A DNA stretch of 64,000 nucleotides from an uncultured Candidatus Cenarchaeum sp. (GTDB lineage: Archaea > Thermoproteota > Nitrososphaeria > Nitrososphaerales > Nitrosopumilaceae): NCBI GenBank assembly GCA_958295735.1, contig OY282369.1, positions 356,161 to 420,160 of the forward strand, read 5' to 3'. The notes under the pieces are model-generated. The model saw only the letters and a program-made list of their open reading frames with translations, searched no databases and was not told where the DNA came from. The translations under genes were made by a program, and so were the position numbers. Every line of letters begins with the position of its first letter. The first letter of the stretch is position 1. Shown one piece after another: positions 34,661-62,879 of this stretch.

Positions 34661-34689
34661 GTTTTAAAGAGTGAGTTGTGTGCTTAGGC

Positions 34690-36597
34690 ATGTCGTATGA
34701 AGACTACAATGTGCATCGCCTATCATTAGACAACCTGCTCAGTAATTACACGTTTGATGTTCCATCCTACCAAAGAAGCTATGCTTGGGATGCTGATAAC
34801 GCCGAACGGCTGTTTGAGGCCCTGGTAGAAACATCGATCACCGAGCGTGGGGCCCGGAACTCCACCAACTTGCTCGGAGCAATGGTTGTGCTTGTTAAAA
34901 AGAGGGGTTACGCGATGTTCGAGGTTGTCGATGGCCAACAGCGCCTCGCAACACTCTCTATGATATTTGGCTCTATGCGTGCACACTTGTCTCATTTCAA
35001 GCAGATGCACCAACCTGGTATGGGCGCCGCCGTTGAAGAAGCTGTGAGCGAGCTTAGTGAAATGTTGGAAATTGAGAACAACTGCCCCCGAGTCACATTA
35101 GGTGAGTCTGATTCTAAGCTGTTCAAAGAGATCATAACTAGTGATGATCCTAATTATGCGGATCTTTGTAAAAAGTTACGATCTAGATACCAAAACGGAA
35201 AGAAAAGAATAGCAGAGTCGCACTTGTCGCTTATAAACAACTATAGAATATTGTGTGAGAAAACAGGCAAGTGGATACAAGAGTTCCAACTACAAGAGGC
35301 CATAGACCAAAAAGATATGGCGGCATTTATGCTCTCGCTCGGTAAACTGAAGAAATGTATTAAAAAGATGAAGGATCAGAACCACTTCGCATTTGTCGAA
35401 GTGCGCACGAGAGATGCGGCATACAAGATATTCAACACATTCAACTCGAGAGGCCAACACCTCACACATGTAGATCTAGTAAAGTCGCATCTTTTAAGCA
35501 ATGTAGAACCAGATCAGGGTAAAAAAGTGATTGAGAATCGTTGGCGGGATATATTTGACGAACGTTTAAAAGATCGCGATCGCTTCTTGTACGAGTCGTT
35601 GTCTTCTAGACACCCGACAGGAAATGTCGACGGCGTCAAAATAACCATAGACAACATATTCAGAATCAATGAGCCGCGTATAAAAGATCTCCCTAGCGCA
35701 GAAAAATATGTTGAAGAGCTTAACACCGACGCCAAGTTCATTAAACAGATGGACTATCCAGGAGATCTTCCAGATGAACAACAATACGATAAAATCAAAA
35801 GCCTCCTTTACGGGATCTTACTACTTAATGCCAGATACATTCGCGTGCCCATACTTGCGGCATGTAGGCGGTGGGGCGGCCTGGAAAACAACGACCTACG
35901 AGATCTAGTAGACTGCCTTCTCACTTTTTTCTTCAAGTTCAAATTCATAAACGACGGCACAGCAGAAGATGTTAGGTCTATAGCCAACGCGATTACAAAA
36001 AAGATAGAAAATGGGGAAAAATTACCAGAGATCATCTACACTGTGCTAGTAAATGAAGACGTTCCAGGAGATCCGGTGAAGCGAATAGATGACGAAAGAT
36101 TTGCAGATAACTTTGCCCCCAAGATGTTCAAGTTGGCAAAAAATACTGCAAAGTACATCTTGTTGTCTATGGAAATTCACACACGGAATGAGATGGGAAA
36201 AGAATGCGTGTACCTCAACTCGCGCTTTGAGTTAGAACACATACTTCCGACGCATCACCAGAAGCATTGGGATGAAAAAAAATTCCTAGGCCAGAATCCA
36301 GAAAGTGGGGACATAAGCAAGTACAAAAACCGCCTAGGTAACCTCACTCTCCTTTCTAAAAAATGGAATCTGAATATAGGAGCGAAAGAATTTTCTGTCA
36401 AACGCGATAATGCTAGCGGGTACGCAAAGTCTGACTTTATGATCAACAAGAAATATCTTAAAGATTACAACGAATGGACTGCAATCAACCTACAACACAG
36501 AGAAAATGATCTTTGTGAAATTGCTTCCAAGGTGTGGTCACTAGACAAGCATTACGCGTATCTCAAGCATAGCGGATACAAAGATCCTAGTCAGTAA
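34690..36597 (+). CDS. DUF262-DUF1524 protein (SspE/GmrSD-like defence nuclease)
   Basis: A 635-residue protein. The N-terminal DUF262 (ParB-like) domain has VPSYQRSYAWDADNAERLFE near residue 24 and the catalytic DGQQRLATLSMIF near 80. The C-terminal DUF1524 domain is a His-Me finger nuclease: LEHILPTHHQKHWDE near 515, then YKNRLGNLTLLSKKWN. Proteins of this build include GmrSD and SspE, the restriction partner in phosphorothioate-based defence, in which NTP hydrolysis by the DGQQR motif controls DNA cutting. ATG 34690 is about 25 nt after GTTTTAAAG. GC content is far lower than core genes, a sign of transfer. Given sspA-D-like genes nearby, an SspE role is my preferred inference. Confidence 0.85.
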   Translation: MSYEDYNVHRLSLDNLLSNYTFDVPSYQRSYAWDADNAERLFEALVETSITERGARNSTNLLGAMVVLVKKRGYAMFEVVDGQQRLATLSMIFGSMRAHLSHFKQMHQPGMGAAVEEAVSELSEMLEIENNCPRVTLGESDSKLFKEIITSDDPNYADLCKKLRSRYQNGKKRIAESHLSLINNYRILCEKTGKWIQEFQLQEAIDQKDMAAFMLSLGKLKKCIKKMKDQNHFAFVEVRTRDAAYKIFNTFNSRGQHLTHVDLVKSHLLSNVEPDQGKKVIENRWRDIFDERLKDRDRFLYESLSSRHPTGNVDGVKITIDNIFRINEPRIKDLPSAEKYVEELNTDAKFIKQMDYPGDLPDEQQYDKIKSLLYGILLLNARYIRVPILAACRRWGGLENNDLRDLVDCLLTFFFKFKFINDGTAEDVRSIANAITKKIENGEKLPEIIYTVLVNEDVPGDPVKRIDDERFADNFAPKMFKLAKNTAKYILLSMEIHTRNEMGKECVYLNSRFELEHILPTHHQKHWDEKKFLGQNPESGDISKYKNRLGNLTLLSKKWNLNIGAKEFSVKRDNASGYAKSDFMINKKYLKDYNEWTAINLQHRENDLCEIASKVWSLDKHYAYLKHSGYKDPSQ

Positions 36598-40335: not shown

Positions 40336-42276
40336 GTAATAGCTCACGATTTTGAGGCAGTTTTGCCCGCATCCGCGTCCGCGTCCGCGGGCTCGGGGAA
40401 CGGCCACGCCTCCCCGCCGGGCGCCGGCCCGGCCGCCGCGCGGCGGGACGCCTCCGGGGACCCCCTGTCCAGGTACTTGACGCAGAACTCGTAGAAGTTC
40501 AGGCCGTTCATCCTGCACGTCTCCTTCACGCTCATCAGCACCGCGTGGCCGCGCGCTCCCTTCCGCGAGCGGCTCCCGCCGGTGATGTTCCGTATGATCA
40601 CGCTGAGCCGCAAGGCCCGCTCCGCCCTGTTGTTGTCGCTCGGGATGCCGGCCATTATGAACGTGAACGCGCGGTCCCTCTCGCGCTTCAGCCTCTTGAC
40701 GAACCGCTTGCAGTTGGGCTCGTCGTAATCCTTGGAGATCAGCCTGTCCAGCCGGGCCTGTAGCCTGGCCGCCCCGCGCTTCCGCTCCTCCGGGTCCGCG
40801 CGCGCGGCCACCTCGCGGGAGTCGTGCAGCATCTTCTTGAACGTGCGCGCGAAGCGCCGGAACTGGGGCCCGGGATCCTTTAACTCGAGGGTCTCTTTTA
40901 CCTCGCGCAGGTAGTGCACGTGGCACTTTTGGTGCGAGTCCCCCACGTGGTTGTACGGGGGATGCGAGTCGCTGGTCATGGTGCCCTTGAATCCATCCAG
41001 CAGGGACAGCAGGACGGACGCGCCGCGCGAGTATTCGACCTTGAACACGGCGAACCGCTCGGCGACGAGCACCCACAGCCACGCGTTCGCGCCGTTGATC
41101 CGCCACGAGGTCTCGTCGCCGTTTATCGCTTTGGCCTTGCGCAGCATTCCCGCCATCGCCGCGTGCAGCGGCTCGAGCGCCCTGGCCGCCCTGCCCACCA
41201 TCTTCACGATCGTCCCCGCCGCGACGTCGATGCCCAGCACCGTCCGGAATATGTCCGCTATGTTGCGGTATGACATGCCGCACATCTTGAGGCTGACCGC
41301 CGCCATCTGCGTGTTCAGGTCGTGCCTGCAGCCGGGCATGGCCCCGGGGGTGTGCGGCGTGTGCACCTTGTTGCACCGGGGGCAGCGCCTCTTGACCTTG
41401 TCGTACCTCACGTTCTCCGTCTCGATCTTCAGCCTTTTCACAGTGCGCGAGCACCTGCCTTCGATCCCCGCCAGCTCGCAGCCGCAGTCCTGGCACGCGC
41501 GCGGGTCGACCTCGACGATCCTGTCGGGCTCCTCGCAGATCTTCCAGGCGCCCCCCCTCTTCTTGGCCTCGCCCTTCTTGGCCTCGCCCTTCTTGGCCTC
41601 GCCCTTCTTGGCCTCGCCCTTCTTGGCCTCGCCCTTCTTGGCCTCGCCCTTCTTGGCCTCGCCCTTCTTGGCCTCGCCCTTCTTGGCCTCGCCCTTCTTG
41701 GCCCGCACGTTGGGCTTTGCCCTGATGAGCTTGGCCGAGACGGCGGAATTGATCTTCCTGGCCTGCACGAGATCCTCCTTCAGCCGCTTGTTTTCTTCCC
41801 CGTACGGGCACGGGCCGCCGCCGTGCGCTTTCTCGCACGCCTGCTCCTTCAGTTTTTTGTTCTCCTCCTTCAGCTCGCCGTTCTCCTTGCCGAGCTTCGC
41901 GACCTCCGCGTCCCGCGCCGAGAGGGCCCTGCCGAGCTTCGCGACCTCCGCGTCCCGCGCCGAGAGGGCCCTGCCGAGCTTCGCGACCTCCGCGTCCCGC
42001 GCCGAGAGGGCCTTCCTACCGGCCCTCCTGCGGGAGCGCTTGGACTTCGTCATCTGCGTGGGGGTAAATATACGCAGCAATAAACTTACCCATTCGAGCC
42101 GTTCCGGGACGGCCAGGAAAGCCCGCTCCGGCCGAACGCCGTCGCGCAGCGCGGGATTTCGCGGGCGTGCCCGGAATGCTTGCCGATCTGCTTCAAAAGC
42201 GCGGGATTTTGCGGCCCTGCTTGGATCTCAAAGCCGCGGTTGCGAGGCAAATCGCCTCAAAATCGTGAGCTATTAC
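40336..42276. mobile_element. IS66-type element (type B), copy 1, intact
   Basis: Ends GTAATAGCTCACGATTTTGA (left) and its complement (right). An 8-bp target duplication CAAATAGA lies at 40328-40335 and 42277-42284. Length 1941 bp. The insertion is inside the IS630 type B transposase gene. Sequence identity with copies 2 and 3 is high, so movement is recent. Confidence 0.95.
40344..42053 (-). CDS. IS66-family transposase (type B), copy 1
   Basis: A 569-residue transposase. Residues 14-55 hold three copies of [14 protein letters not shown] (coiled coil), followed by [14 protein letters not shown], nine copies of AKKGE, a zinc site (ACQDCGCEL and [15 protein letters not shown]), and the DDE core with [23 protein letters not shown] and [23 protein letters not shown] 42053 is preceded by GCGTATATTTA; a longer frame to 42080 crosses this TATA box. 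It is the longest of three copies because of the AKKGE repeat number. Confidence 0.9.
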
Positions 42277-42929
42277 CAAATAGACGCATTTGATGCCATT
42301 TCTAGAGCGAAAAGGCGCGGCAAGCGCATTATAGTGGTAGATGAGTCAATATTCGGCAGGGTCGGCAAGAACGGCGCCAAGTTGTGGAGCCTTGTGGGCG
42401 AGAGGATCGAGGTGGTGAGGGAGGGCTACCGTGACAAGGTGGTGGTGTACGGCGGCATCGCGGACAACAACACGAGCATAATGCGCACGTACGACAAGTT
42501 CAACGCGGCGAACTTCGTCAATTACTTGGCTCAGTTGCTCAGGAAGTACCCGGAAGGGGTGCTCCTGATCATGGACAACGCGGTGCAGCACAAGTCCAAG
42601 AAGGTCAGAAAGTACCTGGAGAGGAACCCGGAGATGGAGGTGCTGTTCCTGCCGGTCGCCAGGCCGGAGCTGAGCGCGATCGAGGAGATCTGGAGGCGGG
42701 CAAAGTACAGGCTGATCACGTCGAAGTACTACAAGTCCTCCGCCGAATTAAGGACCGCCGTTTCGGAACATTTCAGGACATGCTCCATCAAGATCGACAT
42801 CTACGCGTATCTGAAACGCAGTGTTTGACACGAAATAATTACCAATCGCCAATATTGCTCCGTCAAGATCGACGCCTACGCGTGCCTGAAACGCGGTGTT
42901 TGATACGAAATTATCGCCAATCGTCAGTA

Positions 42930-43530
42930 ATGCCTGCCCTGTCACACATCGGGACGAATCATCAAGACATACGGCCAGATTGAGGCTCCTAAAGCGCGAA
43001 TCAATCACCTCGCGCCAGCCTGCGTGCCACATAGCGTTGTAGTACCGCTTCTCAAAACTGACCCATTTCCTGCACCCCGGCCTGGCCAGAGACAGCACCA
43101 CCAGCCCGCCGTTCATCATGATCTTGCAGGCCTTGTTATGGATTATGGCGTGATCGACCATTAGCGCGCGTAGATAGGTCCATTGCGATCTAGGCGTGAG
43201 ACCAGGGGGTGATTTACTGTTGCTGGGCGTGGTTTCGGTTTGGGCGTAAGTCTACACTCAGCGCATTGGCGGTGCGCCAGACGCCGGCATGAGCCTTCTT
43301 GCGTTGCCGCTCCATCAGTTCGGCTTCTGCTTGGTGATCTGCGCGAGGGACCTGCCCGGTCGAAGAATTGGGAGCGGCTCGCCCGTCCGTCTGTATTCCA
43401 CGAGCTGCTTCTGCACGTGCCTCAGGGTCATTTTGATCTCTTAGGCCATCTCGGACGTCTTGCGCCCCTTCTTGTACCCCCTAATCGCGCATCTGATCTG
43501 CTTGTCGGTCAGGAGGCATGCCATCTGCTT
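42930..43530 (-). pseudogene. Integrase (rve/IS481-like) remnant, interrupted by the IS630 type B element
   Basis: On the minus strand an HTH part (LTDKQIRCAIRGYKKGRKTS, a stop, then EIKMTLRHVQKQLVEYRRTG) is followed after further stops by the rve core: RKWVSFEKRYYNAMWHAGWR and LNLAVCLDDSSRCVTGQA. The core breaks exactly at the TA target of the IS630 element and resumes on the far side (39734 down to about 39697) as LMFGDATSENA. The first catalytic Asp seems replaced by Gly in MWHAGW. A 13-bp IS66 type A end lies at 43243-43256. It is a dead element used as a landing site. 43531-43642 shows no gene. Confidence 0.7.
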
Positions 43531-43642
43531 TGTGACTGGTATAGCCTAGAAAAACTGTCCGCTAGCCGCCCGGAGTTGGGGCGACCTAATTTCCACACAA
43601 CGTAAGTCACGGCGCAGTGGTTAACTTTTAATCTACAAGTCC

Positions 43643-45415
43643 CTAGCGCCTGAGGTAATCGTCCAAAACCATCCCCCAGTGGAATCGCGTGTTTGCAAGA
43701 TCTTTTCGTTTTTGATCATTTGGTTCTTCGTCCTCATAGCGCGCCCAAGAACCAAGCAACAGCAGGAGTCCTATCTGCGCGTCTTTGAGTCTTCGGATCG
43801 CATCTTCCCGCCCAATGTCGTCATCAAAGTCGTCTAGAAGAGTGATGAAGTTTTTGTATGCGTTGTGGTTCATGTTTAGTTTTATGACCTCGACGCCGCC
43901 TTCAAGGCTTAGGTCAAAAAGCTGTGAGCCACTTAGCGCGGCCTTTGTGAATACGACTTGGAGGCCATCCTCTATGATCTTCTTGACTTTGGTGTCGAGG
44001 TCCTCACCCGTGAGCAGGTCGCTTAGTGTGTTCCGAAGGGCAACAGAACGCTTTGCATCTGGAAATGCCTGTCGGTCTTCACCGGTGTGGCTTGTGTGCC
44101 CCTCTTTTTCCCTGCGTTTTGATGCCTCATCTACATGGTGACGCCGCTTCGGATCTGTGGTTTGCGTCTTTTCCTGCTGCATGATCTGGGTGCGCATGTG
44201 CCGAATCCGCATTATCAGTGTTTTTACAATAGTGGCCATGTCGTGATCTTCAACTTCGTCGTAGGGCATGTCTGTTGCAGACTCTTGAGCGCTGCGAGCT
44301 CCCATGATCTTTGTCATGGTGGAAAAGTTGGTCGCGTACTGCTTGTTGTTGGTGACGCCGAAGAATTCGTCAAGTCCTGGAGGGAACTCTATTTCCGCAC
44401 CCCACCATCGTTCTCGTGGATTGTATGTCTGGAGTAGGTTTTGATCGATATCGATCTCGCGATCAGCCCTCATAACGGAAACTCCGAGATTTTTGCTAGC
44501 GTGTATGCCGTGCGGAAGTGTGCCAGCTAGCTTACCATCGATTTTTTCTCTAGCCGTGTTGCTAGCAAACGCAAATCGCAGTTTGACCTGATGTGTGGTT
44601 CCGTCGTTGCCAGTAACGTCGAATGTGACTTCTGGCTTTTCTCCATCAAGTTTGAACATGGGCGTGGTATCCCATGGCGCTGGAGTAGATGATGGAACCA
44701 TCTGATATAGTGGATCATTGGGGAGCACGTCAAACTCTTCTTTTATATCGTCCGCTTGAGTTATCGATGCCATTCGTATGCGAAGCTTTTTCGAGTGCAA
44801 GAACCGGCGATAAGTCCGCCCGGCAATATTCTTTGAGTTTCGGATGATCGTTGTGGATTTTTTCCACATGCAACGATCTAGTTTTGACCAGACGACTATG
44901 GTTCCCGTAGGGGCAGGGAGGACTTTCGAGGCAGAGCGCCACGAGTCTGGCATTGCCACTTCTGTCGGGATGGGAATTTCGCGCAACTGGTTCTTTTTGA
45001 TCTCGTCAAGATCCATGTGCGTCGTGATGATGCAGTCTTGATTCCTCCAAGTGTACACATCAACCCTGCTACATTGTGATATAGATGCGTACGGTAGCCC
45101 CATGCCGAATCTTCCGATGCCGCGACGTGCGGTTCGCGTACCCACGCCCAGCCGCAGTGCGTGCCACAGCTCGTCTTTTGACATGCCGGACCCGTTGTCA
45201 AGTACGGCGATCTCGTTTATACGCTCTACTGTGTTCTGTTTGTATTGTTCTACGCGATCCTTGCAGAGGACCTCAACTTGTGTGGCTCTCGCTTCAAACG
45301 AGTTGTCGATCAGCTCGGCCAAGGCGGTAGCTGGATTAGAGTAGCCGCCGTATCTCATCGAGTCAATGAGACCAGGAGACAGGATGGAATGATCGTTGTT
45401 TAAGCTCAATCCCAC
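43643..45415 (-). CDS. GHKL (Hsp90/MORC-like) ATPase in the phosphorothioation gene cluster
   Basis: A 590-residue protein with an N-terminal Bergerat-fold ATPase: ALAELIDNSFEARAT (N box, Glu34 and Asn38), VLDNGSGMSKDE (G1) and RRGIGRFGMGLPYAS (G2), then a transducer-like region. A charged middle part (TTDPKRRHHVDEASKRREKE) and a helical C-terminus follow. GHKL ATPases of this kind occur beside helicases in several defence loci and could act as DNA clamps. It starts at GTG 45415, 10 bp inside the helicase gene, and is the last gene of the sspD-helicase-GHKL operon. Low GC. The specific role is unknown; a part of the restriction or sensing arm is inference. Confidence 0.85.
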   Translation of the reverse strand: MGLSLNNDHSILSPGLIDSMRYGGYSNPATALAELIDNSFEARATQVEVLCKDRVEQYKQNTVERINEIAVLDNGSGMSKDELWHALRLGVGTRTARRGIGRFGMGLPYASISQCSRVDVYTWRNQDCIITTHMDLDEIKKNQLREIPIPTEVAMPDSWRSASKVLPAPTGTIVVWSKLDRCMWKKSTTIIRNSKNIAGRTYRRFLHSKKLRIRMASITQADDIKEEFDVLPNDPLYQMVPSSTPAPWDTTPMFKLDGEKPEVTFDVTGNDGTTHQVKLRFAFASNTAREKIDGKLAGTLPHGIHASKNLGVSVMRADREIDIDQNLLQTYNPRERWWGAEIEFPPGLDEFFGVTNNKQYATNFSTMTKIMGARSAQESATDMPYDEVEDHDMATIVKTLIMRIRHMRTQIMQQEKTQTTDPKRRHHVDEASKRREKEGHTSHTGEDRQAFPDAKRSVALRNTLSDLLTGEDLDTKVKKIIEDGLQVVFTKAALSGSQLFDLSLEGGVEVIKLNMNHNAYKNFITLLDDFDDDIGREDAIRRLKDAQIGLLLLLGSWARYEDEEPNDQKRKDLANTRFHWGMVLDDYLRR

Positions 45416-47013
45416 ACGTCTTCCCAGTTGCCAAATGCGCTGACCATGCTGTCAAAGCCCGGCAGGCTTGTATCTACTACTGTAGCGATCGTGCATCTTT
45501 TTGTCCCACCCACCTTTGGTCCGCGTATGGCCCTGCCAACCATCTGGCTGTAGAGGACCAGAGACTTGGTCGGCCTTGCGATCAGTACAGCAGTTGTTTT
45601 GGGAGCATCGAATCCTGCAGTTAATACCCCAAAATTGCACAAAATTATTGGTGACTCCGAGTCGGACTTGTACTCGCTAATGGCCCTGTTGCGGATCTCG
45701 CCCGGCGTTGCCGCGTCTATGTAGGAGGAGCGGTGGCGGCGCGCATGCAACGTCATAGAAATGTCTTTGGCGTTGGCCACGCTAGTCGCGAAGTATATGA
45801 TCCGTGTATGGCCTTTGCTGATCATTTCTTCGAGTTTCGATATGATCATGATGTTGCGCGCTATATCTCTTGCGAGCTTGTCTAGTATGTGTTGCGGGAT
45901 ATCAATGTCAAGGTGTAGCCGCTCGAGGTCTTCGGGAATGAGGTGATCTTTGTATTCTAGCCGTTCCATAGCTTGTCTTGCGATAAACTCGTTTTTGACC
46001 AGAAAATCGATCGGACTTTCTGTATTCAACGTAACCTTGTTGCGATGAAAGAACAGTGCTAGCTTCTCGTCTTTTAAGCGGTCATTCCACGTACGACCCG
46101 GCGTTGCGCTTAGGCCCAGGAGCCTTACATTGTGTTTTTCTACCAGTGAGTCCAGTATGAATTCATAGGTTTCAGCGATCGCCTGGTGAGCCTCGTCTAT
46201 TACGACGAGGGACATCCTGTCAGCAAGCGTGGTTAGGAACATGTCATGTCTTTGCGCCAAGCGGAACATCTTCGAGAGACCCGCCACTATAAGGCCCGTC
46301 CGGTGGGCCTTAGACAGTAGGTCGGGCGCGTGGTTTCCGTAAAGGCGGTAGACTCGCACATCTTGGTTTCCCACGCTCCCCCATGTTGCTACAAACTCTT
46401 CAATGGCCTGCTCGCAAAGCTCTTCACTGTGGGCCAGCCAGATCACGAGCGCGTCGGGATCGTTTAAGAACACGTCAGCGACGTACATCAAAGCCGTCTT
46501 CGTCTTGCCGGCCCCCGTCGGCATGTGAAGCAAGGCCCTAGCACCAGGCTTGTCAAGCTTCCGCTTGATCGTTAAGATCGCGGCGATCTGGTGATCAAAC
46601 AGTGGCTTTGCAGGTCTAGCCGTGTCTATCGAGCTGACGACAGCAGGACTTTCGTGCTCTTCCCAAACCACTTCGAAGAACCCAAAAAGCACCCTCTCGC
46701 TGTTGGAGTTTTTGCGAAACGACATGCGGCATATCTTGGAGTACAGGTCGTCGCCGTCTGCGCATGCGAGTTGGAGTTCGCGTGCAAGTCCCACTATCCT
46801 CTTTCTTGTTAGGGCCATTATCAACGCCGATCGCATCGCCTTGTCACGCAACATAGCGCTTTGCGAGACCCTTTCAAGGACGATCTGCCGGAGGCGCTCT
46901 GGCTCGATCGACACAGGATCGAGTGTTTTGAGCGTCTCGATGCAAGCCTTGCTCAGAAATACCTCTTGCAACCTGTGTTCGCCCATATTTACGAGCGTAC
47001 TCTCTATCTTCAT
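45406..47013 (-). CDS. SF2 (DEAD/DEAH) helicase in the phosphorothioation gene cluster
   Basis: About 535 residues. An N-terminal ~135-residue helical domain of unknown type precedes a full SF2 helicase: LLHMPTGAGKTKTAL (I), VVIDEAHQAIAE (II, DEAH), LLGLSATPGRTWNDR (III), TAGFDAPKTTAVLIARPTKS (V) and YSQMVGRAIRG (VI). No nuclease motif is seen. Such helicases accompany DNA phosphorothioation gene sets as part of the restriction arm. ATG 47013 (AMKIESTLVNMG) lies 11 nt after the sspD stop; a GTG at 47046 would make the genes overlap. A ~34-bp stretch around motif III recurs inside a transposase remnant at 55517. Confidence 0.88.
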   Translation of the reverse strand: MKIESTLVNMGEHRLQEVFLSKACIETLKTLDPVSIEPERLRQIVLERVSQSAMLRDKAMRSALIMALTRKRIVGLARELQLACADGDDLYSKICRMSFRKNSNSERVLFGFFEVVWEEHESPAVVSSIDTARPAKPLFDHQIAAILTIKRKLDKPGARALLHMPTGAGKTKTALMYVADVFLNDPDALVIWLAHSEELCEQAIEEFVATWGSVGNQDVRVYRLYGNHAPDLLSKAHRTGLIVAGLSKMFRLAQRHDMFLTTLADRMSLVVIDEAHQAIAETYEFILDSLVEKHNVRLLGLSATPGRTWNDRLKDEKLALFFHRNKVTLNTESPIDFLVKNEFIARQAMERLEYKDHLIPEDLERLHLDIDIPQHILDKLARDIARNIMIISKLEEMISKGHTRIIYFATSVANAKDISMTLHARRHRSSYIDAATPGEIRNRAISEYKSDSESPIILCNFGVLTAGFDAPKTTAVLIARPTKSLVLYSQMVGRAIRGPKVGGTKRCTIATVVDTSLPGFDSMVSAFGNWEDVWD

Positions 47014-47024
47014 CGCAACTGCCC

Positions 47025-47861
47025 TCACACGTGGCACAAAGTGCACGAAGCGCTTTCTTCTTCTTCGTCGAGAGCGTCAGACAATACATCAACCAAGGGC
47101 AAGTTTTTGCGCTTCATCTTGGCTCTTTTGAGGTTTTCCTTGTGGCGCGCCATGATCTCGTCCTTACGCTCGAGCAGTTGTAATAGCGTCTCGCCCTGCG
47201 ACCACGTGTAGTTGCCACTCTTCATGGCGCTAGACTTAAACGATGCATCTCTGCCCGCTCCTGCGTCCTTTAGTATTTTTTGCTCTATAGCCACCGCTCT
47301 CTTGAAGAGATCCGGGTGGGTGTCTGCTAGTCCGACCCATTCGGACTTGCGCTGAAAGAAGCAGAAGTAGCAACCCGACCGTGTCCGCCATTTGTAGTAG
47401 TCGGGCAGGTTCAGTCCTGAGTCTTCAAGTATGCGGATCACTCCCGCATGGTCTATTTCGTTGTCTATGAACGGAAACTCGGTTTTGATGTTCGGCTTGG
47501 TCGAGATGTAGCCCTTTCGGTTGTTCTCGTCGGCCCGTATAGCAACATAAGATACGACATCTTCGTTTCCTATCCACTCTTCCAAGGGCTTTATCTTTAG
47601 GAGGGTGGTGCACCATCTCATCTGCGGAGAAGGCAACGTGCCACGGAACACCTCAAAGTAGTGATCGAACCCGCGGGTTGAATTCAGGCGGGTTATGGGC
47701 TTGCCCAATACGACTTCAAGCTTGGCCAAGTATGCGTATGTCTCCGGCAACTCCGCCCCCGTATCGCAGAAAAAGTACTCCATGTCGGAGATTTTTTTGC
47801 GCATGTATATCGCCAAAGCGCTCGAGTCTTTTCCACCCGAAATGCCGCATATGTGCCTCAC
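47025..47861 (-). CDS. PAPS reductase/DndC-like ATP pyrophosphatase (SspD-like)
   Basis: A 278-residue N-type ATP pyrophosphatase. The PP-loop is CGISGGKDSSALAIYM at the start, Cys84 (QMRWCTTLLKIKP), Cys164 and Cys167 (GCYFCFFQRKSEW) fit an Fe-S site as in DndC, and a CTLCHV ends the protein. Enzymes of this family activate DNA phosphate so that sulfur from a cysteine desulfurase can replace a non-bridging oxygen. GTG 47861 is about 26 nt after TTTATTAAG, giving a leaderless transcript starting close to repeat element B. It leads the operon with helicase and GHKL genes. With the sspA/B/C-like genes at 57-63 kb it would complete the modification set. Confidence 0.85.
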   Translation of the reverse strand: MRHICGISGGKDSSALAIYMRKKISDMEYFFCDTGAELPETYAYLAKLEVVLGKPITRLNSTRGFDHYFEVFRGTLPSPQMRWCTTLLKIKPLEEWIGNEDVVSYVAIRADENNRKGYISTKPNIKTEFPFIDNEIDHAGVIRILEDSGLNLPDYYKWRTRSGCYFCFFQRKSEWVGLADTHPDLFKRAVAIEQKILKDAGAGRDASFKSSAMKSGNYTWSQGETLLQLLERKDEIMARHKENLKRAKMKRKNLPLVDVLSDALDEEEESASCTLCHV

Positions 47862-51739: not shown

Positions 51740-53662
51740 GTAATAGCTCACGATTTTGAGGCGATTTGCCTCGCAACCGCGGCTTTGAGATCCAAGCAGG
51801 GCCGCAAAATCCCGCGCTTTTGAAGCAGATCGGCAAGCATTCCGGGCACGCCCGCGAAATCCCGCGCTGCGCGACGGCGTTCGGCCGGAGCGGGCTTTCC
51901 TGGCCGTCCCGGAACGGCTCGAATGGGTAAGTTTATTGCTGCGTATATTTACCCCCACGCAGATGACGAAGTCCAAGCGCTCCCGCAGGAGGGCCGGCAG
52001 GAAGGCCCTCTCGGCACGGGACGCGGAGGTCGCGAAGCTCGGCAGGGCCCTCTCGGCGCGGGACGCGGAGGTCGCGAAGCTCGGCAGGGCCCTCTCGGCG
52101 CGGGACGCGGAGGTCGCGAAGCTCGGCAGGGCCCTCTCGGCGCGGGACGCGGAGGTCGCGAAGCTCGGCAAGGAGAACGGCGAGCTGAAGGAGGAGAACA
52201 AAAAACTGAAGGAGCAGGCGTGCGAGAAAGCGCACGGCGGCGGCCCGTGCCCGTACGGGGAAGAAAACAAGCGGCTGAAGGAGGATCTCGTGCAGGCCAG
52301 GAAGATCAATTCCGCCGTCTCGGCCAAGCTCATCAGGGCAAAGCCCAACGTGCGGGCCAAGAAGGGCGAGGCCAAGAAGGGCGAGGCCAAGAAGGGCGAG
52401 GCCAAGAAGGGCGAGGCCAAGAAGGGCGAGGCCAAGAAGAGGGGGGGCGCCTGGAAGATCTGCGAGGAGCCCGACAGGATCGTCGAGGTCGACCCGCGCG
52501 CGTGCCAGGACTGCGGCTGCGAGCTGGCGGGGATCGAAGGCAGGTGCTCGCGCACTGTGAAAAGGCTGAAGATCGAGACGGAGAACGTGAGGTACGACAA
52601 GGTCAAGAGGCGCTGCCCCCGGTGCAACAAGGTGCACACGCCGCACACCCCCGGGGCCATGCCCGGCTGCAGGCACGACCTGAACACGCAGATGGCGGCG
52701 GTCAGCCTCAAGATGTGCGGCATGTCATACCGCAACATAGCGGACATATTCCGGACGGTGCTGGGCATCGACGTCGCGGCGGGGACGATCGTGAAGATGG
52801 TGGGCAGGGCGGCCAGGGCGCTCGAGCCGCTGCACGCGGCGATGGCGGGAATGCTGCGCAAGGCCAAAGCGATAAACGGCGACGAGACCTCGTGGCGGAT
52901 CAACGGCGCGAACGCGTGGCTGTGGGTGCTCGTCGCCGAGCGGTTCGCCGTGTTCAAGGTCGAATACTCGCGCGGCGCGTCCGTCCTGCTGTCCCTGCTG
53001 GATGGATTCAAGGGCACCATGACCAGCGACTCGCATCCCCCGTACAACCACGTGGGGGACTCGCACCAAAAGTGCCACGTGCACTACCTGCGCGAGGTAA
53101 AAGAGACCCTCGAGTTAAAGGATCCCGGGCCCCAGTTCTGGCGCTTCGCGCGCACGTTCAAGAAGATGCTGCACGATTCCCACGAGGTGGCCGCGTGCGC
53201 GGACCCGGAGGAGCGGAAGCGCGGGGCGGCCAGGCTCCTGGCCCGGCTGGACAGGCTGATCTCCAAGGATTACGACGAGCCCAACTGCAAGCGGTTCGTC
53301 AAGAGGCTGAAGCGCGAGAGGGACCACGCGTTCACGTTCATAATGGCCGGCATCCCGAGCGACAACAACAGGGCGGAGCGGGCCTTGCGGCTCAGCGTGA
53401 TCATACGGAACATCACCGGCGGGAGCCGCTCGCGGAAGGGAGCGCGCGGCCACGCGGTGCTGATGAGCGTGAAGGAGACGTGCAGGATGAACGGCCTGAA
53501 CTTCTACGAGTTCTGCGTCAAGTACCTGGACAGGGGGTCCCCGGAGGCGTCCCGCCGCGCGGCGGCCGGGCCGGCGCCCGGCGGGGAGGCGTGGCCGTTC
53601 CCCGAGCCCGCGGACGCGGACGCGGATGCGGGCAAAACTGCCTCAAAATCGTGAGCTATTAC
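51740..53662. mobile_element. IS66-type element (type B), copy 3, intact
   Basis: Ends GTAATAGCTCACGATTTTGA and complement, with 8-bp target duplications GGAAAACG at 51732-51739 and 53663-53670. Length 1923 bp. It is the innermost element of the nest, so the youngest insertion here. Confidence 0.96.
51963..53654 (+). CDS. IS66-family transposase (type B), copy 3
   Basis: A 563-residue transposase with the same architecture as copy 1, but four [14 protein letters not shown]-type units and five AKKGE units. The zinc site ([15 protein letters not shown]) and DDE core ([30 protein letters not shown]) are intact. Length relative to copy 1 (-6 residues) equals one 14-residue unit more and four 5-residue units fewer. 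ATG 51963 follows GCGTATATTTACCC. A few substitutions (for example [12 protein letters not shown] for [12 protein letters not shown]) separate it from copy 1. Confidence 0.92.
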
Positions 53663-57220: not shown

Positions 57221-60200
57221 CTACGGCGGTTCGGCTGCACGCTCAGCGGCGTCAAGAACTCCGTCGGACGAGATGCGGGTACTTAGCTCAGCCAAGAATG
57301 CTCGTAAGTGGTCGTCGGTGTATCCCTTGCCACGTAGGTCGTTGATCGCGCGGTCTGCCATTTCTTTGACATGGCGCCTTTTGGATGGCGGCAGCGATAC
57401 GATGGAGTTGTCCTCGCGGCCGTCGGCATGCGTCACCGTCAAGCGGTAGGCAGGCTGTGCATAGCTGTCTGACACGTCCGCAAACCGCATCGATGACAGA
57501 CGAGCAAACCGCGCAGAGATGTACTTTAGGTTGTTGGTAAACAGGATGCGCTGTTCGTCGCTCCAGTTAGAAGGCGGCACGCCGGTGAGCGCGAGCGCCA
57601 CGTATTTTATCCAGTCCATGTCGTGCTCAAGCACGTCGTTTGTGACTGCGGTCAGGAAGATCTTCATCTCGTGATCTAGAACGGCCGGTGCCACTGTCGC
57701 CGCCGCCTTGGATAGCTTTTCGCGAGTCTGTATCAAGGTCGACTTTAGAAGAGTCTGCACAAGATCATCTAACATTCTGTCAAACGCCGATCCCAGTTCG
57801 GCTACAGACTTTGCGAGGTCGGTGGCAAACTTTTCGGCTTCAGCCCCCCTGTAGCGGTTGCGGGCGAGCGGCGTGTGGCCGAGGGCTCGAGGCAAGGAAT
57901 CAAGCAACAGCGTGTCCGGCTCGACGGCCGTCTCAATGGCAAGACGGACGGCGAGAGTTTTTTTGCTGAGCATTTTTGTTTTTTTGATGTGTGGCGAGAG
58001 AGCGGCGTACACCCTGACGAGGTGTGATACGATGGAGAGAACTGATGTGCGCGCGGCTTTTTCCTCCCCCTCCAGGCCGAGCTCGCCGGCGATGCATTCG
58101 AGTGTGGCCCGGTTTGCCGCCCCGTGCTCAAAATGTTTTACTTCAAAATGCGCGGGGTTTCGCACCAGACGCTCGGCGATCTCTAGCGTGAGTGCGCGAC
58201 AGTACGTCCCGTGCTCATACAGGGCCATGCGATCTCGGCGCACGAGCAGGACAGAGACCAAGATCACCGGCAACAGGCCAGCTTTGACGCCGTATGGAGG
58301 CTTTGAGAGCGTTTCGTACAAGGAGGCCACAGGGACGCGCTTGCCAGCATCCTTCGCCATGCTGACGATCTTTCTCCACGAGTGCTTGAGGTGTGCATCA
58401 GAAGGCGCGTGCAGGCCAAATTCAAAGCCGGAAGCGCGGTGTATTCCGGTTCTGCCCAGCACTGCCTCATACATGGCTCGCTCTGGGCCCCACCCATCCA
58501 TCCCCAAGACGGGCCTATCAGATCGCTCGATCATGGCCCCCAGCAGTTTGTTCAGGGCAGTCGACCCTTGCGCGGTCAAGGCGTTGCGGGTGATCATCTC
58601 GTTGAATATGCGAGGCGCTTGCGAGTACTGCTCGTCACAGAGGGCCGACACGGTATGGCTAAGCGTCACTTCCGGCCTGCCGCGCCTAGCGCCTCCGCGC
58701 CCCGACGCCGCCACGGATGCCGTCTCGAACGCTCTTTCGAGTGACGACTCGGCCCAAGCCAAGCGCTCTGCCAGCTCACTCTGCGAAACCCAGTCCGCCT
58801 GTATTTCAGGGCTGTTGTTGCGTACGTCTCGTATGGACGCCACTTCAAGGGCCGCCTCGCGCAAGTCCTCCAGATGTGACAGCCTTATGTAGTTCGCGGG
58901 CATTTTTCGGCGCTCGGAGGGAGGCGTCGGGCCCGTCAAGTATACTATCACGCCGTCGAATTCAGACTGCGGCTCGACGGGCGCGGAGTCGGGCTGATCC
59001 GCAAACACTCTCTCGAATATGCGGACGGTGCCCGTCTGCAGGGCGTGCCTGGCAGCCACAACTGGGTCAAGCTGCAGCGTCGACTCAAGTATGTCTGTGA
59101 GCGAGGCGGCGGCCAGCTTGCGGCGCGCGATCTCGAGTTTTGCCTGTATGTCGACATCTGTGCCGTGCCATATGCGGTATTCGTCGGAGTGGCGGCGGTA
59201 CGTCACGATGGATCGCCGTTCAAGGGCCTTTAACGCCTTGTCGGGGTTGGCGCCGATCGCGTACTCTATCATGGTCCTTGATGCGCGCAGGCGTCCGGCG
59301 CGCCCGACCAAGTTGAGGATGCCTATAGACTTGAGCACGGCCGTCTCTTTGTCTGACAGCCCTTGCGTGTCTCGTATGATGGTCTCTATCTCCAAGAGCC
59401 GCGACGTTTTTGACGATATGGAATGGACCAGTGGCGATCCGGACACGAAATAGTCGTACAGCGCGTCAAGGCGCACCAGCGGAAGGGCGCCCCTACCGTC
59501 CCACGACGCACGGTCGATGAAGCGCGACACCGTGTGTTCTCCGCCGCCGGTAATGAACGAGATCAGGGTGCGTTCGTGCTGGCCGTACCGCGAGCACAGC
59601 TCGGGAATGACTTCCAGCGCGAGCGGGTGCAGCGGGTAGCAGGCCAGCAGCAAGCCGGCGTTCAGATCGCTTCCGAGTCCTACAGATGCCGCTTCCCGCG
59701 CCTGGGACCTGGCCCATTTGTCAATGGCGCGCTTTGCGGTCCCGGCGCTCCGGCCGCCGGCCATTTGGAGCATGCTTGTTATGAGCAACCGCGTCTGCTC
59801 GGGCGAGTTTGCGAACGGTATGTCGTCGAACCTGCCTTGGACCTTGGCCCACTCCTGCTTTAGCGCCGAGGATGCCCCCGTCGCGTATTCCTCAAAGGCC
59901 ATGTGCTGCAGCGTTATCATGAACAGCGGGACATCACGAGTTCCGCCCGACATCTCTGCAAGCTCCTGCAGCAGAAACAGGTCGCCCTCGTGCGTGTTTT
60001 CGTCGGTAAAGTACTCCACGTTCTTGCCGAATTCGTCTATGACCATCAGAACGGGACCTACGGCGCACAGCCCCCTGACGACGTCGGTTATGGAGGCAAC
60101 ATCCGGCGGCACCCCGCGGGCGAGCCCCCGCACCATCCGGTTGAGGGCGGCCGCCCCCGAAAAGCTGCCCGCGCGGTACTTGCCAAACCTTTGCCTCGCC

Positions 60201-60658
60201 CCCGCATCTAGCGCGCGCAGGATCGTTGCAGCTATCGGCTCTCGTCTGGACGTGACGAGGCAGCGGATCATCCCGCTTCGCTTGACTCCCAGCGCCCTCC
60301 TGGACCTGTCAAACGTGTCGGCGAGCCTAGGGTCGGACCTGCGCAGGATGGCTTTGGCGGCCTTCCACTCCTTGCTCGTAGACGGCGCAACGAGCCCGTC
60401 GAGAAATACGCACATGGTCGATTTTCCCGAGCCGTACGGACCGGTCACGGAGATTGCGTGGCCGCGCTTGCCGCCGCGCATTCCGGCGCCGAGCCTGGCC
60501 ACGGTCTCAAGCGTTCCAGAGCCCGGTATGTAGTCTTCTAGCGTCTTTATGTTCCGATCCTGCTCGATGCTGATCGAGGCGTACGCGGGCGGCCTCGCCT
60601 CGACAATCCTCGTCAGCGGCGTGGCCCTAGCCTGCGGGAGCGACTCCTGGCGAGTCAC
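57221..60658 (-). CDS. Large P-loop ATPase (SspC-like) of the phosphorothioation cluster
   Basis: An 1145-residue protein. An ATPase domain near the N-terminus has SVTGPYGSGKSTMCVFLDG (Walker A, about residue 73) and VLMVIDEFGKNVEYF (Walker B, about 203), with MITLQHMAFEEYA as a sensor. The rest is long and mostly helical with winged-helix-like stretches (ETAVLKSIGILNLVGRAGRL). GTG 60658 overlaps the DUF4007 stop (GTGA), so they are co-translated. A cysteine desulfurase, DUF4007 protein and large ATPase in one operon match the sspA-B-C arrangement of single-strand phosphorothioation systems. The assignment to SspC rests on this order and size, as I cannot run an alignment. GC is moderate, higher than the sspD operon. 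Confidence 0.75.
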   Translation of the reverse strand: MTRQESLPQARATPLTRIVEARPPAYASISIEQDRNIKTLEDYIPGSGTLETVARLGAGMRGGKRGHAISVTGPYGSGKSTMCVFLDGLVAPSTSKEWKAAKAILRRSDPRLADTFDRSRRALGVKRSGMIRCLVTSRREPIAATILRALDAGARQRFGKYRAGSFSGAAALNRMVRGLARGVPPDVASITDVVRGLCAVGPVLMVIDEFGKNVEYFTDENTHEGDLFLLQELAEMSGGTRDVPLFMITLQHMAFEEYATGASSALKQEWAKVQGRFDDIPFANSPEQTRLLITSMLQMAGGRSAGTAKRAIDKWARSQAREAASVGLGSDLNAGLLLACYPLHPLALEVIPELCSRYGQHERTLISFITGGGEHTVSRFIDRASWDGRGALPLVRLDALYDYFVSGSPLVHSISSKTSRLLEIETIIRDTQGLSDKETAVLKSIGILNLVGRAGRLRASRTMIEYAIGANPDKALKALERRSIVTYRRHSDEYRIWHGTDVDIQAKLEIARRKLAAASLTDILESTLQLDPVVAARHALQTGTVRIFERVFADQPDSAPVEPQSEFDGVIVYLTGPTPPSERRKMPANYIRLSHLEDLREAALEVASIRDVRNNSPEIQADWVSQSELAERLAWAESSLERAFETASVAASGRGGARRGRPEVTLSHTVSALCDEQYSQAPRIFNEMITRNALTAQGSTALNKLLGAMIERSDRPVLGMDGWGPERAMYEAVLGRTGIHRASGFEFGLHAPSDAHLKHSWRKIVSMAKDAGKRVPVASLYETLSKPPYGVKAGLLPVILVSVLLVRRDRMALYEHGTYCRALTLEIAERLVRNPAHFEVKHFEHGAANRATLECIAGELGLEGEEKAARTSVLSIVSHLVRVYAALSPHIKKTKMLSKKTLAVRLAIETAVEPDTLLLDSLPRALGHTPLARNRYRGAEAEKFATDLAKSVAELGSAFDRMLDDLVQTLLKSTLIQTREKLSKAAATVAPAVLDHEMKIFLTAVTNDVLEHDMDWIKYVALALTGVPPSNWSDEQRILFTNNLKYISARFARLSSMRFADVSDSYAQPAYRLTVTHADGREDNSIVSLPPSKRRHVKEMADRAINDLRGKGYTDDHLRAFLAELSTRISSDGVLDAAERAAEPP

Positions 60659-61611
60659 GCCGCCATCGTCTCCTGCCGCGCCCGCGGCCTTTCCTTGGGG
60701 GGTCGGCGCCCGTACAGGCTGTGCAGTACCGCGCGCTTAGCGTCCTCCGCGCCGTCCTTGAACGACAGGCTGGGCACGCCGTTGACGTTTTGCACGGCGA
60801 TGGCGCCGCAGGCGTCGGCCGCCTCCGTGAGAAGATCAGAAACGTCCGCCTCGTCTAGCCTGAATACCCTTCCCGGGCCGCCCGCCTCCATGGCCAAGCG
60901 GTGCACTGTTATCGTCCTTCCCTGCGACTCGGCGCGGTCGACAAAGTCGAGGCACGCGAAGGCGACGGCGAGCGGAGCCATGCCCGGCTTGCGGCCGGAC
61001 ACGAACCTCATTTCGTCTCGGGTGTTCTGCCGGAGCATGCGCAAGTTCCGGAACGGGCAGTCCAGGTAGTCCTCGATCATCGTGCGGCCCCTCTTTGACG
61101 AGTAGGTGTGGACGAACACGTCTAGATCCTTGTCGACGGAGAGGAGGCTGGGCGATTTCCACCGTTCGACCCCCTCGACCGCGGCCCGCACGCGTTTCTT
61201 GAGCTCGACTGTATCGATCACGGTGGCCAGCATGTCGTTCATTATAATCCACCACGCGGGCAAGAGGCACGGCGGCGCAAAGATGAGCCAGTGCAGGATC
61301 CAGAGCGTGCCGGGATTCTCCATGTACGGATCGAGGCCGTCCTTGTCGTCGAGCACGGCGCGGCCGAGCGCGGTCGGTTCCACGATCTGCGCTTTTTTGT
61401 CGGCCCTGTACATCTTGGTTGCCAGGCCCCAGAAGCGCATGGACCTTACCATGTTCTTGCCGACGCCGAGCCGGACGGTGGCATCGTCGCGCAAAAATAT
61501 GCGGTTGTCCTTGAGCAGGCCGTCGTACCCCTTTTTGAGCCACCCGTATCGCAAGTGGAATGTCTCGTGGCGCGCGAATGATGCCGCGGGCGCGGCTTCG
61601 TCGGGGCGCAT
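60655..61611 (-). CDS. DUF4007 protein (SspB-like)
   Basis: A 318-residue DUF4007 protein. The diagnostic start is FARHETFHLRYGWLKKGYDG, followed by FLRDDATVRLGVGKNMVRSM and RFWGLATKMY, as in this family. DUF4007 proteins are encoded with sulfur-transfer enzymes in phosphorothioation operons, where SspB is described as a DNA nickase; I infer the same role. No metal-site motif is evident. ATG 61611 overlaps the cysteine desulfurase stop (TGATG); a longer frame upstream lies inside that gene. The stop overlaps the start of the ATPase gene. Confidence 0.85.
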   Translation of the reverse strand: MRPDEAAPAASFARHETFHLRYGWLKKGYDGLLKDNRIFLRDDATVRLGVGKNMVRSMRFWGLATKMYRADKKAQIVEPTALGRAVLDDKDGLDPYMENPGTLWILHWLIFAPPCLLPAWWIIMNDMLATVIDTVELKKRVRAAVEGVERWKSPSLLSVDKDLDVFVHTYSSKRGRTMIEDYLDCPFRNLRMLRQNTRDEMRFVSGRKPGMAPLAVAFACLDFVDRAESQGRTITVHRLAMEAGGPGRVFRLDEADVSDLLTEAADACGAIAVQNVNGVPSLSFKDGAEDAKRAVLHSLYGRRPPKERPRARQETMAA

Positions 61612-62879
61612 CAGGTGGCCGACCCCCGCGCGGAGGCCGCCTGCCCCGATGCAGGCGCCGTGGCCGCAGACGCAACCAATTCGATCCTGCGCAAGCGCGC
61701 GGCCGCCGCGGCGAGTTCTTTCACGGCAGTGCGGACGTCGGGCTCGGCGGACGGCCTGCCGAACGAGACTCGCACGCACTCGTCGGCCGCCGTCCTGTCG
61801 CGGCCCATCGCGAGTAGCACGTGTGACGGCTCAACGGTGGCCGACGTGCACGCGCTGCCCGTGGCGATCTCGATGCCCTTGGCGTTGGCCAGCACGGCGT
61901 CGGCAAACACGCCGTCGATCCTCACGTTGGACGTGTTGGGCAGGCGCTCGGCGCCCTTTCCGTTGACGGTAACGCGAGGCACCGCTTCCAAAAGATCGTC
62001 CTCGAATCGGTCGCGCAACGCGGCCTGATGCGGCGCGCCGCGAAGGCCTTCGTCCAGGGATATCTCGCACGCGACGCCGAACCCCACTATGCCTGGCACG
62101 TTTAGCGTGCCGCCGCGCATCCCGTTTTCCTGCCCGCCGCCGTGCAGCACGGGCCTGAGCAACCGTCGCGCCTCCCGGGTGGCGACGAGCGCACCGCATC
62201 CCTTTGGGCCGTACATCTTGTGCGCGCTGAGCGTGACCATGTCGACTCCGAGATCGCCCGCGTCGAACGGGATCTTCCCGGCCGCCTGCGTCGCGTCGCA
62301 GTGGAACAAGGCGCCGTGCGAGTGGGCAATGCTGGCCGCATCTCTGACTGGGTGAATGACCCCGGTCTCGCTGTTGGCCGCCATCACGGACACGATGTCC
62401 GCCCCGGGGCCGCCGTCGCCGTGGCCCGATGCCAGCATGTCCCCTAGTGCCGACAGGTCGAGCGTGCCGCCCGAGTCGACGGGCACGGTGTTCAGAGTAG
62501 AACCCTCGTCGGCCAGCGATCTGCACGCCTCGAGGACGGACTTGTGCTCCGTCGCGCCGGCCAGCATGCGTATGGGCCTCCCCCTGCCCTTGCGCAGCCC
62601 CGCCACGGCCAGATTGTTCGCCTCGGTCGCGCCCGATGTGAAGATGACGTCTCCCTTGCTCATGCCAACCAGTTTGGAGACGCGGCCGCGCGCCTCGCTG
62701 ACCAGCGCTGTGGCCTCGCGTCCCGTGGCGTGGCCTGCGCTTGACGGGTTGCCAAACCGCATCCCGAATACGGGGATCATCGCGTCAATGACGCGCGAAT
62801 CCGTGGGCGTAGTTGAATTGTAGTCCAAGTATAGCGGGGCGGCCGCGGTGCCCGTCTCCGCGACTGTGGAGATTGCCAT
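61611..62879 (-). CDS. Cysteine desulfurase (IscS/DndA class, SspA-like)
   Basis: A 422-residue PLP enzyme that takes sulfur from cysteine. It begins APLYLDYNSTTPTDSRV; GATEHKS holds the PLP-stacking His112, LSAHKMYGPKGCGAL the PLP Lys221, and ATGSACTSAT the active-site Cys344 in the long IscS-type loop. A TATA-like ACTTAATTA lies about 25 nt before ATG 62879. It heads the overlapping operon with DUF4007 and the ATPase, which favours a role as sulfur donor for DNA modification. A general function in Fe-S assembly cannot be excluded, as sufC is also in the window. The Ala/Ser-rich C-terminal tail (ATAPASGQAASARGSAT) is likely unstructured. Confidence 0.9.
   Translation of the reverse strand: MAISTVAETGTAAAPLYLDYNSTTPTDSRVIDAMIPVFGMRFGNPSSAGHATGREATALVSEARGRVSKLVGMSKGDVIFTSGATEANNLAVAGLRKGRGRPIRMLAGATEHKSVLEACRSLADEGSTLNTVPVDSGGTLDLSALGDMLASGHGDGGPGADIVSVMAANSETGVIHPVRDAASIAHSHGALFHCDATQAAGKIPFDAGDLGVDMVTLSAHKMYGPKGCGALVATREARRLLRPVLHGGGQENGMRGGTLNVPGIVGFGVACEISLDEGLRGAPHQAALRDRFEDDLLEAVPRVTVNGKGAERLPNTSNVRIDGVFADAVLANAKGIEIATGSACTSATVEPSHVLLAMGRDRTAADECVRVSFGRPSAEPDVRTAVKELAAAAARLRRIELVASAATAPASGQAASARGSAT

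What the first reader, a model, noticed from the sequence alone, without database searches (positions are those of the whole stretch)
43643..47861. sspD-helicase-GHKL operon as a possible new restriction arm
The DndC-like gene is tightly followed by a DEAH helicase lacking a nuclease domain, and then by a GHKL ATPase with complete N, G1 and G2 boxes. Known phosphorothioation restriction modules use other protein sets (DndFGH, SspE, SspFGH); a GHKL clamp plus helicase could move along DNA and test its modification. The nuclease would then be provided by the DUF262-DUF1524 or HNH protein.
Basis: inference. Interest (0 to 1): 0.75.

Follow-up and report, generated by a model that had tools for sequence, protein, structure and literature searches.

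The report
Three-gene restriction arm for sulfur-tagged DNA
Next to genes that tag an archaeon's own DNA with sulfur lies a pair of DNA-motor genes that, in many unrelated bacteria and archaea, travels with those tagging genes and usually with a DNA-cutting enzyme, which suggests an undescribed antiviral restriction module whose cutter has been lost at this one locus.

Summary
In detail: sspD (47025-47861), a DEAH helicase without a nuclease domain (45406-47046) and a GHKL ATPase with intact N/G1/G2 boxes (43643-45415) overlap head to tail on the minus strand, with sspA, sspB and sspC upstream (57221-62879).

The restriction-arm reading is largely supported. Of 46 well-flanked relatives of this GHKL, 41 carry SspB/C/D within about 10 kb, 40 the cognate helicase just upstream and 35 a phospholipase-D (PLD/HKD) nuclease. 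All 12 plasmids with full-length homologues also carry sspC. In a cyanobacterial sample, 15 of 17 GHKL genomes have sspC, against 48 of 276 others (p=2e-9). A sister clade of the arm sits beside Dnd genes in three archaea and beside Ssp in others.

Its slot here holds transposon debris, and the genome's only PLD relative has lost catalytic residues. Neither the HNH nor the DUF262-DUF1524 protein is a constant partner.

Best explanation: a MORC-like clamp plus RadD/SauUSI-like translocase plus PLD nuclease, an unnamed restriction arm of phosphorothioate systems. Activity and the direction of PT sensing are untested. The copy in this window may be crippled.

The parts
61611..62879 (-). sspA, cysteine desulfurase of the phosphorothioate modification module
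   Evidence: PADLOC SspA E=1e-123
60655..61779 (-). sspB (DUF4007 family); homology begins at residue 67, so the real start is probably near 61581
   Evidence: PADLOC SspB E=3e-90, residues 67-356
57221..60658 (-). sspC, large AAA+ ATPase of the modification module
   Evidence: PADLOC SspC E=2e-299
47025..47861 (-). sspD, PAPS-reductase-like protein; modification module, first gene of the coupled cluster
   Evidence: PADLOC SspD E=8e-108; Pfam PAPS_reduct
45406..47046 (-). SF2 DEAH helicase/translocase of the arm; Walker A K181, DEAH 284-287 and motif VI QMVGRAIR intact; about 140-residue helical N-terminal region; no nuclease domain
43643..45415 (-). GHKL (MORC-like) ATPase of the arm, N/G1/G2 boxes intact, invariant NNKQ with candidate S5-domain lysine K358
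42840..43605 (.). repetitive transposon debris filling the slot where the same-genus genome G001 has the convergent PLD nuclease gene; ends about 40 bp from the GHKL stop codon
   Evidence: 51 partial copies in the same genome; no PLD homology in the window; G001 order in L027
55761..56693 (-). HNH_2 endonuclease-like protein between sspC and sspD; probably a hitch-hiker, as it is absent from the other loci surveyed
34678..36597 (+). DUF262-DUF1524 (GmrSD-type) protein; occasional neighbour of the arm (relatives in six other loci); possible separate effector

Best explanation
The helicase and GHKL genes are the two-gene core of an unnamed restriction arm of phosphorothioate (PT) defence systems; in most genomes the third gene is a PLD-family (HKD) nuclease. 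Proposed working (inferred): the MORC-like GHKL protein dimerises on ATP and closes round DNA; the SF2 motor translocates or remodels DNA; PT marks made by SspABCD (or by Dnd in the sister clade) decide whether the PLD dimer is allowed to nick or cut. Shown here: gene content, intact motifs, family-specific association with PT genes, exchange between Ssp and Dnd, substitution or loss of the nuclease. Inferred: complex formation, DNA loading, PT sensing, cleavage. In this genome the cognate PLD is missing from the locus and the only relative elsewhere has a broken HKD motif, so this copy may be impaired or may borrow another nuclease. Whether PT blocks the arm (as with SspFGH/DndFGH) or is needed for it (as with SspE/Pbe) is open. 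I lean slightly to the second, because the same-genus genome G001 keeps an intact arm with PLD but no detectable sspC.
For: Of 80 relatives, 69 have the helicase directly upstream, 57 a PLD gene and 65 SspB/C/D; with at least 9 kb on both sides, 40, 35 and 41 of 46. Plasmids: 12 of 12 with full-length GHKL carry sspC, against 67 of 72,556 overall. Cyanobacterial sample: 15/17 versus 48/276, Fisher p=2e-9. Annotated loci show helicase-GHKL-PLD beside SspA/B/C/D. The sister clade (GHKL-helicase-PLD) lies beside Dnd genes in G006, G110 and G086 and beside Ssp in G016, G201 and plasmid pSC52_2. The PLD profile matches SauUSI, an ATP-dependent PLD restriction enzyme; the helicase model matches RadD and SauUSI; the GHKL model matches MORC. 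More distant GHKLs without the helicase have no Ssp or Dnd module next to them.
Against: No experiment. PLD is absent near the arm in 11 of 46 well-flanked loci, and four of four PLD-less Nostocales genomes with the arm and Ssp genes have no PLD of this family anywhere, so the nuclease is not universal. Some helicase-GHKL pairs lie in neighbourhoods with no PT genes (L044, L047, L066, L077). In the window itself the PLD is missing.
Confidence: 0.7

Rival explanations
1. Independent defence system parked in the same islands: helicase-GHKL-PLD is a self-standing restriction or abortive system of the MORC/paraMORC type that only shares defence islands with PT genes, without functional coupling.
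For: Prokaryotic MORC/paraMORC genes are known to sit with SF2 helicases in many R-M islands (PMC2292703). A few helicase-GHKL pairs stand alone.
Against: Coupling is far tighter than island sharing: 41 of 46 loci and 12 of 12 plasmids, direct gene overlap with sspD here, and exchange between two unrelated PT modules (Ssp and Dnd) rather than other modification types.
Confidence: 0.15
2. The helicase and GHKL assist PT modification rather than restriction: for example, opening or holding DNA so that SspB/C/D can insert sulfur into one strand.
For: They are overlapped with sspD in the window, and some lineages keep helicase+GHKL+Ssp without any PLD of this family in the genome.
Against: SspABCD suffices for PT modification in the published systems (PMC8092258), and most sspC genomes in the sample lack the arm (48 of 63). 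A nuclease follows the GHKL in most loci. One genome lacks sspC but keeps the whole arm.
Confidence: 0.1
3. Relic (about this copy only, compatible with the best explanation for the family): in this window the arm is a decaying remnant with no function, because its nuclease gene was replaced by insertion sequences.
For: IS debris reaches within about 40 bp of the GHKL stop. The genome's only PLD relative has lost the catalytic Lys and Asn. The island is riddled with transposases.
Against: Helicase and GHKL ORFs are full length with every catalytic motif intact, and PLD-less arms persist in several Nostoc genomes.
Confidence: 0.35

Closest known systems
SspABCD-SspFGH and SspABCD-SspE (PT-based defence)
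   Same: Same modification module (SspA, B, C, D); a separate effector arm beside it, as with sspFGH (PMC8092258)
   Different: Different effector proteins: the SspFGH paper has 0 occurrences of 'helicase', 'GHKL' or 'HATPase'; SspE is a single DUF262-DUF1524 protein. The window's DUF262-DUF1524 protein matches HEC-06/Orf5 far better than SspE
DndCDEA-PbeABCD / CxC ABC-ATPase systems
   Same: PbeA fuses an HKD (PLD) nuclease to an SF2 helicase in a PT-linked, partly archaeal system (PMC6459918, PMC10853773); our helicase matches PbeA models in the helicase part
   Different: Here PLD and helicase are separate proteins, the partner ATPase is a GHKL/MORC protein and not an ABC ATPase, and no PbeB/D genes were seen
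Prokaryotic MORC/paraMORC-helicase R-M systems (Iyer, Abhiman, Aravind 2008)
   Same: GHKL ATPase next to an SF2 helicase and a nuclease, occasionally HKD (PMC2292703); MORC modules are the best structural matches
   Different: Those operons were linked to DNA methylases; the 2008 paper has no mention of phosphorothioation or PAPS (0 occurrences)
SauUSI (ATP-dependent PLD restriction enzyme)
   Same: PLD nuclease and SF2 helicase in one machine; matches both the PLD profile and the helicase model
   Different: Single polypeptide acting on modified-cytosine DNA (own knowledge), with no GHKL partner and no PT link
VcSduA (GHKL-type Shedu, type I-D)
   Same: A GHKL ATPase thought to gate a nuclease in phage defence (PMC12137116)
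   Different: PD-(D/E)xK nuclease fused to the GHKL; no helicase, no PT

Membership tests
SspABCD PT modification module | SspA, SspB (DUF4007), SspC, SspD all present | tested here: met
   all four by PADLOC models, ORFs complete
SspABCD PT modification module | PT in the host DNA | not testable with these tools
   needs LC-MS of symbiont DNA
SspFGH restriction arm | SspF, SspG, SspH beside sspBCD | tested here: not met
   PADLOC scan of the six flanking proteins lists no such match, and the arm has helicase and GHKL instead (the paper's description)
SspE effector | DUF262-DUF1524 protein that matches SspE models best | tested here: not met
   window 34678-36597: HEC-06 6e-72, Orf5 1e-54, SspE 4e-21
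PbeABCD | PLD-helicase fusion plus ABC ATPase (PbeC) and PbeB/D | tested here: not met
   helicase has no PLD domain; partner is GHKL
Prokaryotic MORC/paraMORC-SF2 helicase restriction systems | GHKL+S5 ATPase module, MORC-like | tested here: met
   MORC/SMCHD1 top Foldseek and profile matches, GHKL followed by further alpha/beta region
Prokaryotic MORC/paraMORC-SF2 helicase restriction systems | operonic SF2 helicase and nuclease | tested here: inconclusive
   helicase met; nuclease (PLD) met in 35/46 loci but absent from this window
Prokaryotic MORC/paraMORC-SF2 helicase restriction systems | assignment to MORC or a specific paraMORC1-5 family | not tested
   the family alignments were not available here
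ATP-dependent PLD restriction enzymes (SauUSI type) | active HKD nuclease acting with an SF2 motor | tested here: inconclusive
   HKD conserved in nearly all relatives, but the own-genome copy reads HLS for HLK and lacks the Asn; activity untested

The most novel reading that the evidence does not exclude
A widespread, undescribed class of PT restriction complex in which a MORC-type DNA clamp and an SF2 motor read phosphorothioate marks and license a PLD nuclease, interchangeable between single-strand (Ssp) and double-strand (Dnd) PT systems and present in bacteria and archaea. It would account for part of the roughly 84% of sspBCD loci with no known effector.
Probability: 0.6. Interest if true: 0.85.

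Novelty: new variant of a known kind. Interest (0 to 1): 0.72.

Why it matters
A published survey found that 83.9% of 2,678 sspBCD loci had neither SspE nor SspFGH and asked what their restriction partners are (PMC8092258). This arm is a concrete, testable answer for a good share: 15 of 63 sspC genomes in the cyanobacterial sample and at least 12 of 67 sspC plasmids. It also places a relative of the eukaryotic chromatin-silencing MORC ATPases in a system that appears to read a backbone modification rather than a base modification, and its pairing with both Ssp and Dnd offers a way to ask what part of the PT mark is sensed.

Tried and rejected
Chance neighbourhood of sspD: rejected. HNH as the arm's nuclease: rejected as a general partner, since no relative occurs in the other loci surveyed. 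DUF262-DUF1524 as the arm's nuclease: weak, relatives in only six loci. Known PT arm under another name: PADLOC has no named model for the GHKL (only MzaB, over the ATPase domain) or the PLD (weak DrmC/ZacB); no held paper joins phosphorothioation with GHKL, and the MORC-joined hits that were opened are reference-list or unrelated mentions. The 2026 BREX paper uses DUF4007 for type-4 BREX but never mentions GHKL or MORC. BREX type 4: PADLOC scores for the window genes favour SspB/C/D over BrxC/BrxP by wide margins. Phage collection: only two weak, partial matches. The first attempts to centre a sample on a locus id failed and were redone with a genome handle.

Full report
What is there. PADLOC identifies the first as SspD (E=8e-108), and the same strand upstream carries SspC, SspB and SspA, so the locus holds a complete Ssp phosphorothioate (PT) modification module split by about 9 kb of transposons and an HNH gene. 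The arm is 51-54% G+C in flanks of 65-75%, as expected of a mobile defence island. The host is a Nitrosopumilaceae/Cenarchaeum-type archaeon: the contig of a related genome is titled Cenarchaeum sp. SB0662_bin_33 (the family name is inferred from that title).

The proteins. The helicase has ResIII, DEAD and Helicase_C domains and no nuclease; Walker A, DEAH and motif VI are invariant among 32 relatives, and its model (pLDDT 85) matches RadD and the motor of SauUSI. The GHKL protein has HATPase_c_3, invariant N, G1 and G2 boxes and an invariant NNKQ. Its model (pLDDT 85) is closest to SMCHD1 and MORC2/3/4 ATPase modules, then MutL and Hsp90, and the profile search of solved structures also ranks MORC2 first.

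Neighbourhood survey. A profile of this GHKL family found 327 relatives in 84,980 genomes; the best 80 loci were read and annotated with HMMs built here. 69 have the cognate helicase directly upstream on the same strand, 57 a PLD-family gene (55 directly next to the GHKL), 65 SspB, SspC or SspD. Among the 46 with at least 9 kb on both sides the numbers are 40, 35 and 41. Hosts span Cyanobacteria, Chloroflexi, Actinomycetota, Bacteroidota, Pseudomonadota, Bacillota, Acidobacteriota, Armatimonadetes, Gemmatimonadetes and archaea. On plasmids, all 12 records with a full-length homologue (H103-H114) also carry sspC, though only 67 of 72,556 plasmids do (hypergeometric 1e-37, which ignores relatedness). 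In an evenly drawn cyanobacterial sample of 293 genomes, 15 of 17 with the GHKL have sspC against 48 of 276 without (Fisher p=2e-9); in 13 of the 15 both lie on one contig within about 13 kb. The sample sets were chosen by GHKL or by lineage, not by Ssp. Related genomes are not independent, so the p values are only indicative.

The missing third gene. Typical loci read helicase-GHKL-PLD beside SspA/B/C/D. The PLD profile matches phospholipase D proteins and SauUSI, an ATP-dependent restriction enzyme. In the same-genus genome G001 the order is sspD-helicase-GHKL followed by a convergent PLD gene. In the window the corresponding slot is filled by repetitive transposon sequence (51 partial copies in the genome) reaching to about 40 bp from the GHKL stop, and no PLD homology remains. 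The only PLD relative in the genome (G000:C1:2473797-2474702) reads HLS where relatives read HLK and has lost the conserved Asn, so it is probably inactive. Four of four PLD-less Nostocales genomes with the arm and Ssp genes likewise have no such PLD anywhere, and some have an HNH gene in the slot. Agrobacterium and Aminobacter plasmids have an unrelated 359-residue protein there. The constant core is thus helicase+GHKL; the nuclease is usual but replaceable.

Two clades, two PT systems. The sister GHKL clade (order GHKL-helicase-PLD) lies beside DndB/C/D/E and a cysteine desulfurase in G006 (L032) and G110 (L133), beside DndD/E and a cysteine desulfurase in G086 (L135, cut at the contig end), and beside Ssp genes in G016 (L033), G201 (L134) and a Rhodobacteraceae plasmid (L116). 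The tree separates the clades (SH-aLRT 96) and shows pairs without PT genes nested within the Ssp-linked clade. More distant GHKLs on plasmids, without the helicase, have no Ssp or Dnd module beside them. An arm that follows two unrelated PT-making modules is best read as a PT effector.

How it most likely works. Shown: gene content, motifs, linkage, modular exchange. Inferred: an ATP-driven MORC-type dimer clamps DNA, the SF2 motor moves or remodels it, and PT marks govern whether the PLD enzyme cuts. Two directions are possible. SspFGH attacks DNA without PT and is toxic without sspBCD; SspE needs PT to act (PMC8092258), and PbeABCD also depends on PT (PMC6459918). G001 keeps sspD, helicase, GHKL and PLD with an intact HKD, plus a second sspA-sspB-sspD set, but has no sspC by two searches. 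If PT is then absent, an arm attacking unmodified DNA should kill the cell, which tilts me slightly to PT-required action, or to an arm silent until triggered. This is weak evidence from one genome.

Relation to the known. The arm fits the MORC/paraMORC-helicase theme proposed in 2008 (PMC2292703), where the partners were methylases; the PT link is not in that paper. It resembles PbeABCD in using PLD plus helicase (PMC10853773) but differs in protein set. No held paper joins phosphorothioation and GHKL, and PADLOC-DB has no named model for the GHKL or PLD as a PT partner. The library holds only open-licence papers, so an earlier description elsewhere cannot be excluded.

Verdict. Observation confirmed; interpretation partly supported and extended. 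It is a new variant of PT-based restriction, with the copy in this window likely missing its own nuclease.

Noticed in passing
G000:C1:1637423-1640800 (L031, L122): The same genome has a second, clade-II GHKL-helicase pair (60% identical to the Dnd-linked one of G006) among transposases, with no PLD or PT genes near it.
   Followed up: partly
L035 9726-11060 (G000:C1:2473797-2474702): Lone PLD homologue with G+C-rich, genome-like composition and a broken HKD motif (HLS for HLK, Asn lost).
   Followed up: yes
L149 12065-15070 (G001:C1:624064-627069): G001 has a second sspA-sspB-sspD set with sspC missing between sspB and sspD, and no sspC anywhere in a one-contig genome.
   Followed up: partly
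L022 9028-10107 and L025 11765-12844: In Agrobacterium and Aminobacter plasmids the PLD slot holds an unrelated 359-residue protein without Pfam match; the pattern D-I-L-W...QVKSS hints at a PD-(D/E)xK-type nuclease (by eye only).
   Followed up: partly
L116 19656-20288: A PC4-type single-stranded-DNA-binding protein sits between GHKL and helicase in the clade-II arm of plasmid pSC52_2.
   Followed up: no
L141 end and L036 start (G015 contigs C6 and C124): Contig ends suggest sspB-C-D followed by a clade-II GHKL, then helicase, clade-I GHKL and PLD: possibly two GHKLs flanking one helicase. The join was not made.
   Followed up: no
window 40344-42080 and 51936-53654: Copies of one IS66-like transposase differ in the number of in-frame AKKGE and [14 protein letters not shown] repeats.
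   Followed up: no
L017 5345-8166, L016 5333-8358, L020 12722-14502: A DndB-like protein with a small companion gene recurs between sspD and the helicase (or beside sspD) in several Ssp loci with this arm.
   Followed up: partly
L044 8388-11821, L047, L066, L077, L087, L095: Helicase-GHKL pairs without Ssp or PLD in otherwise housekeeping neighbourhoods of Microcoleus and Chloroflexi.
   Followed up: partly
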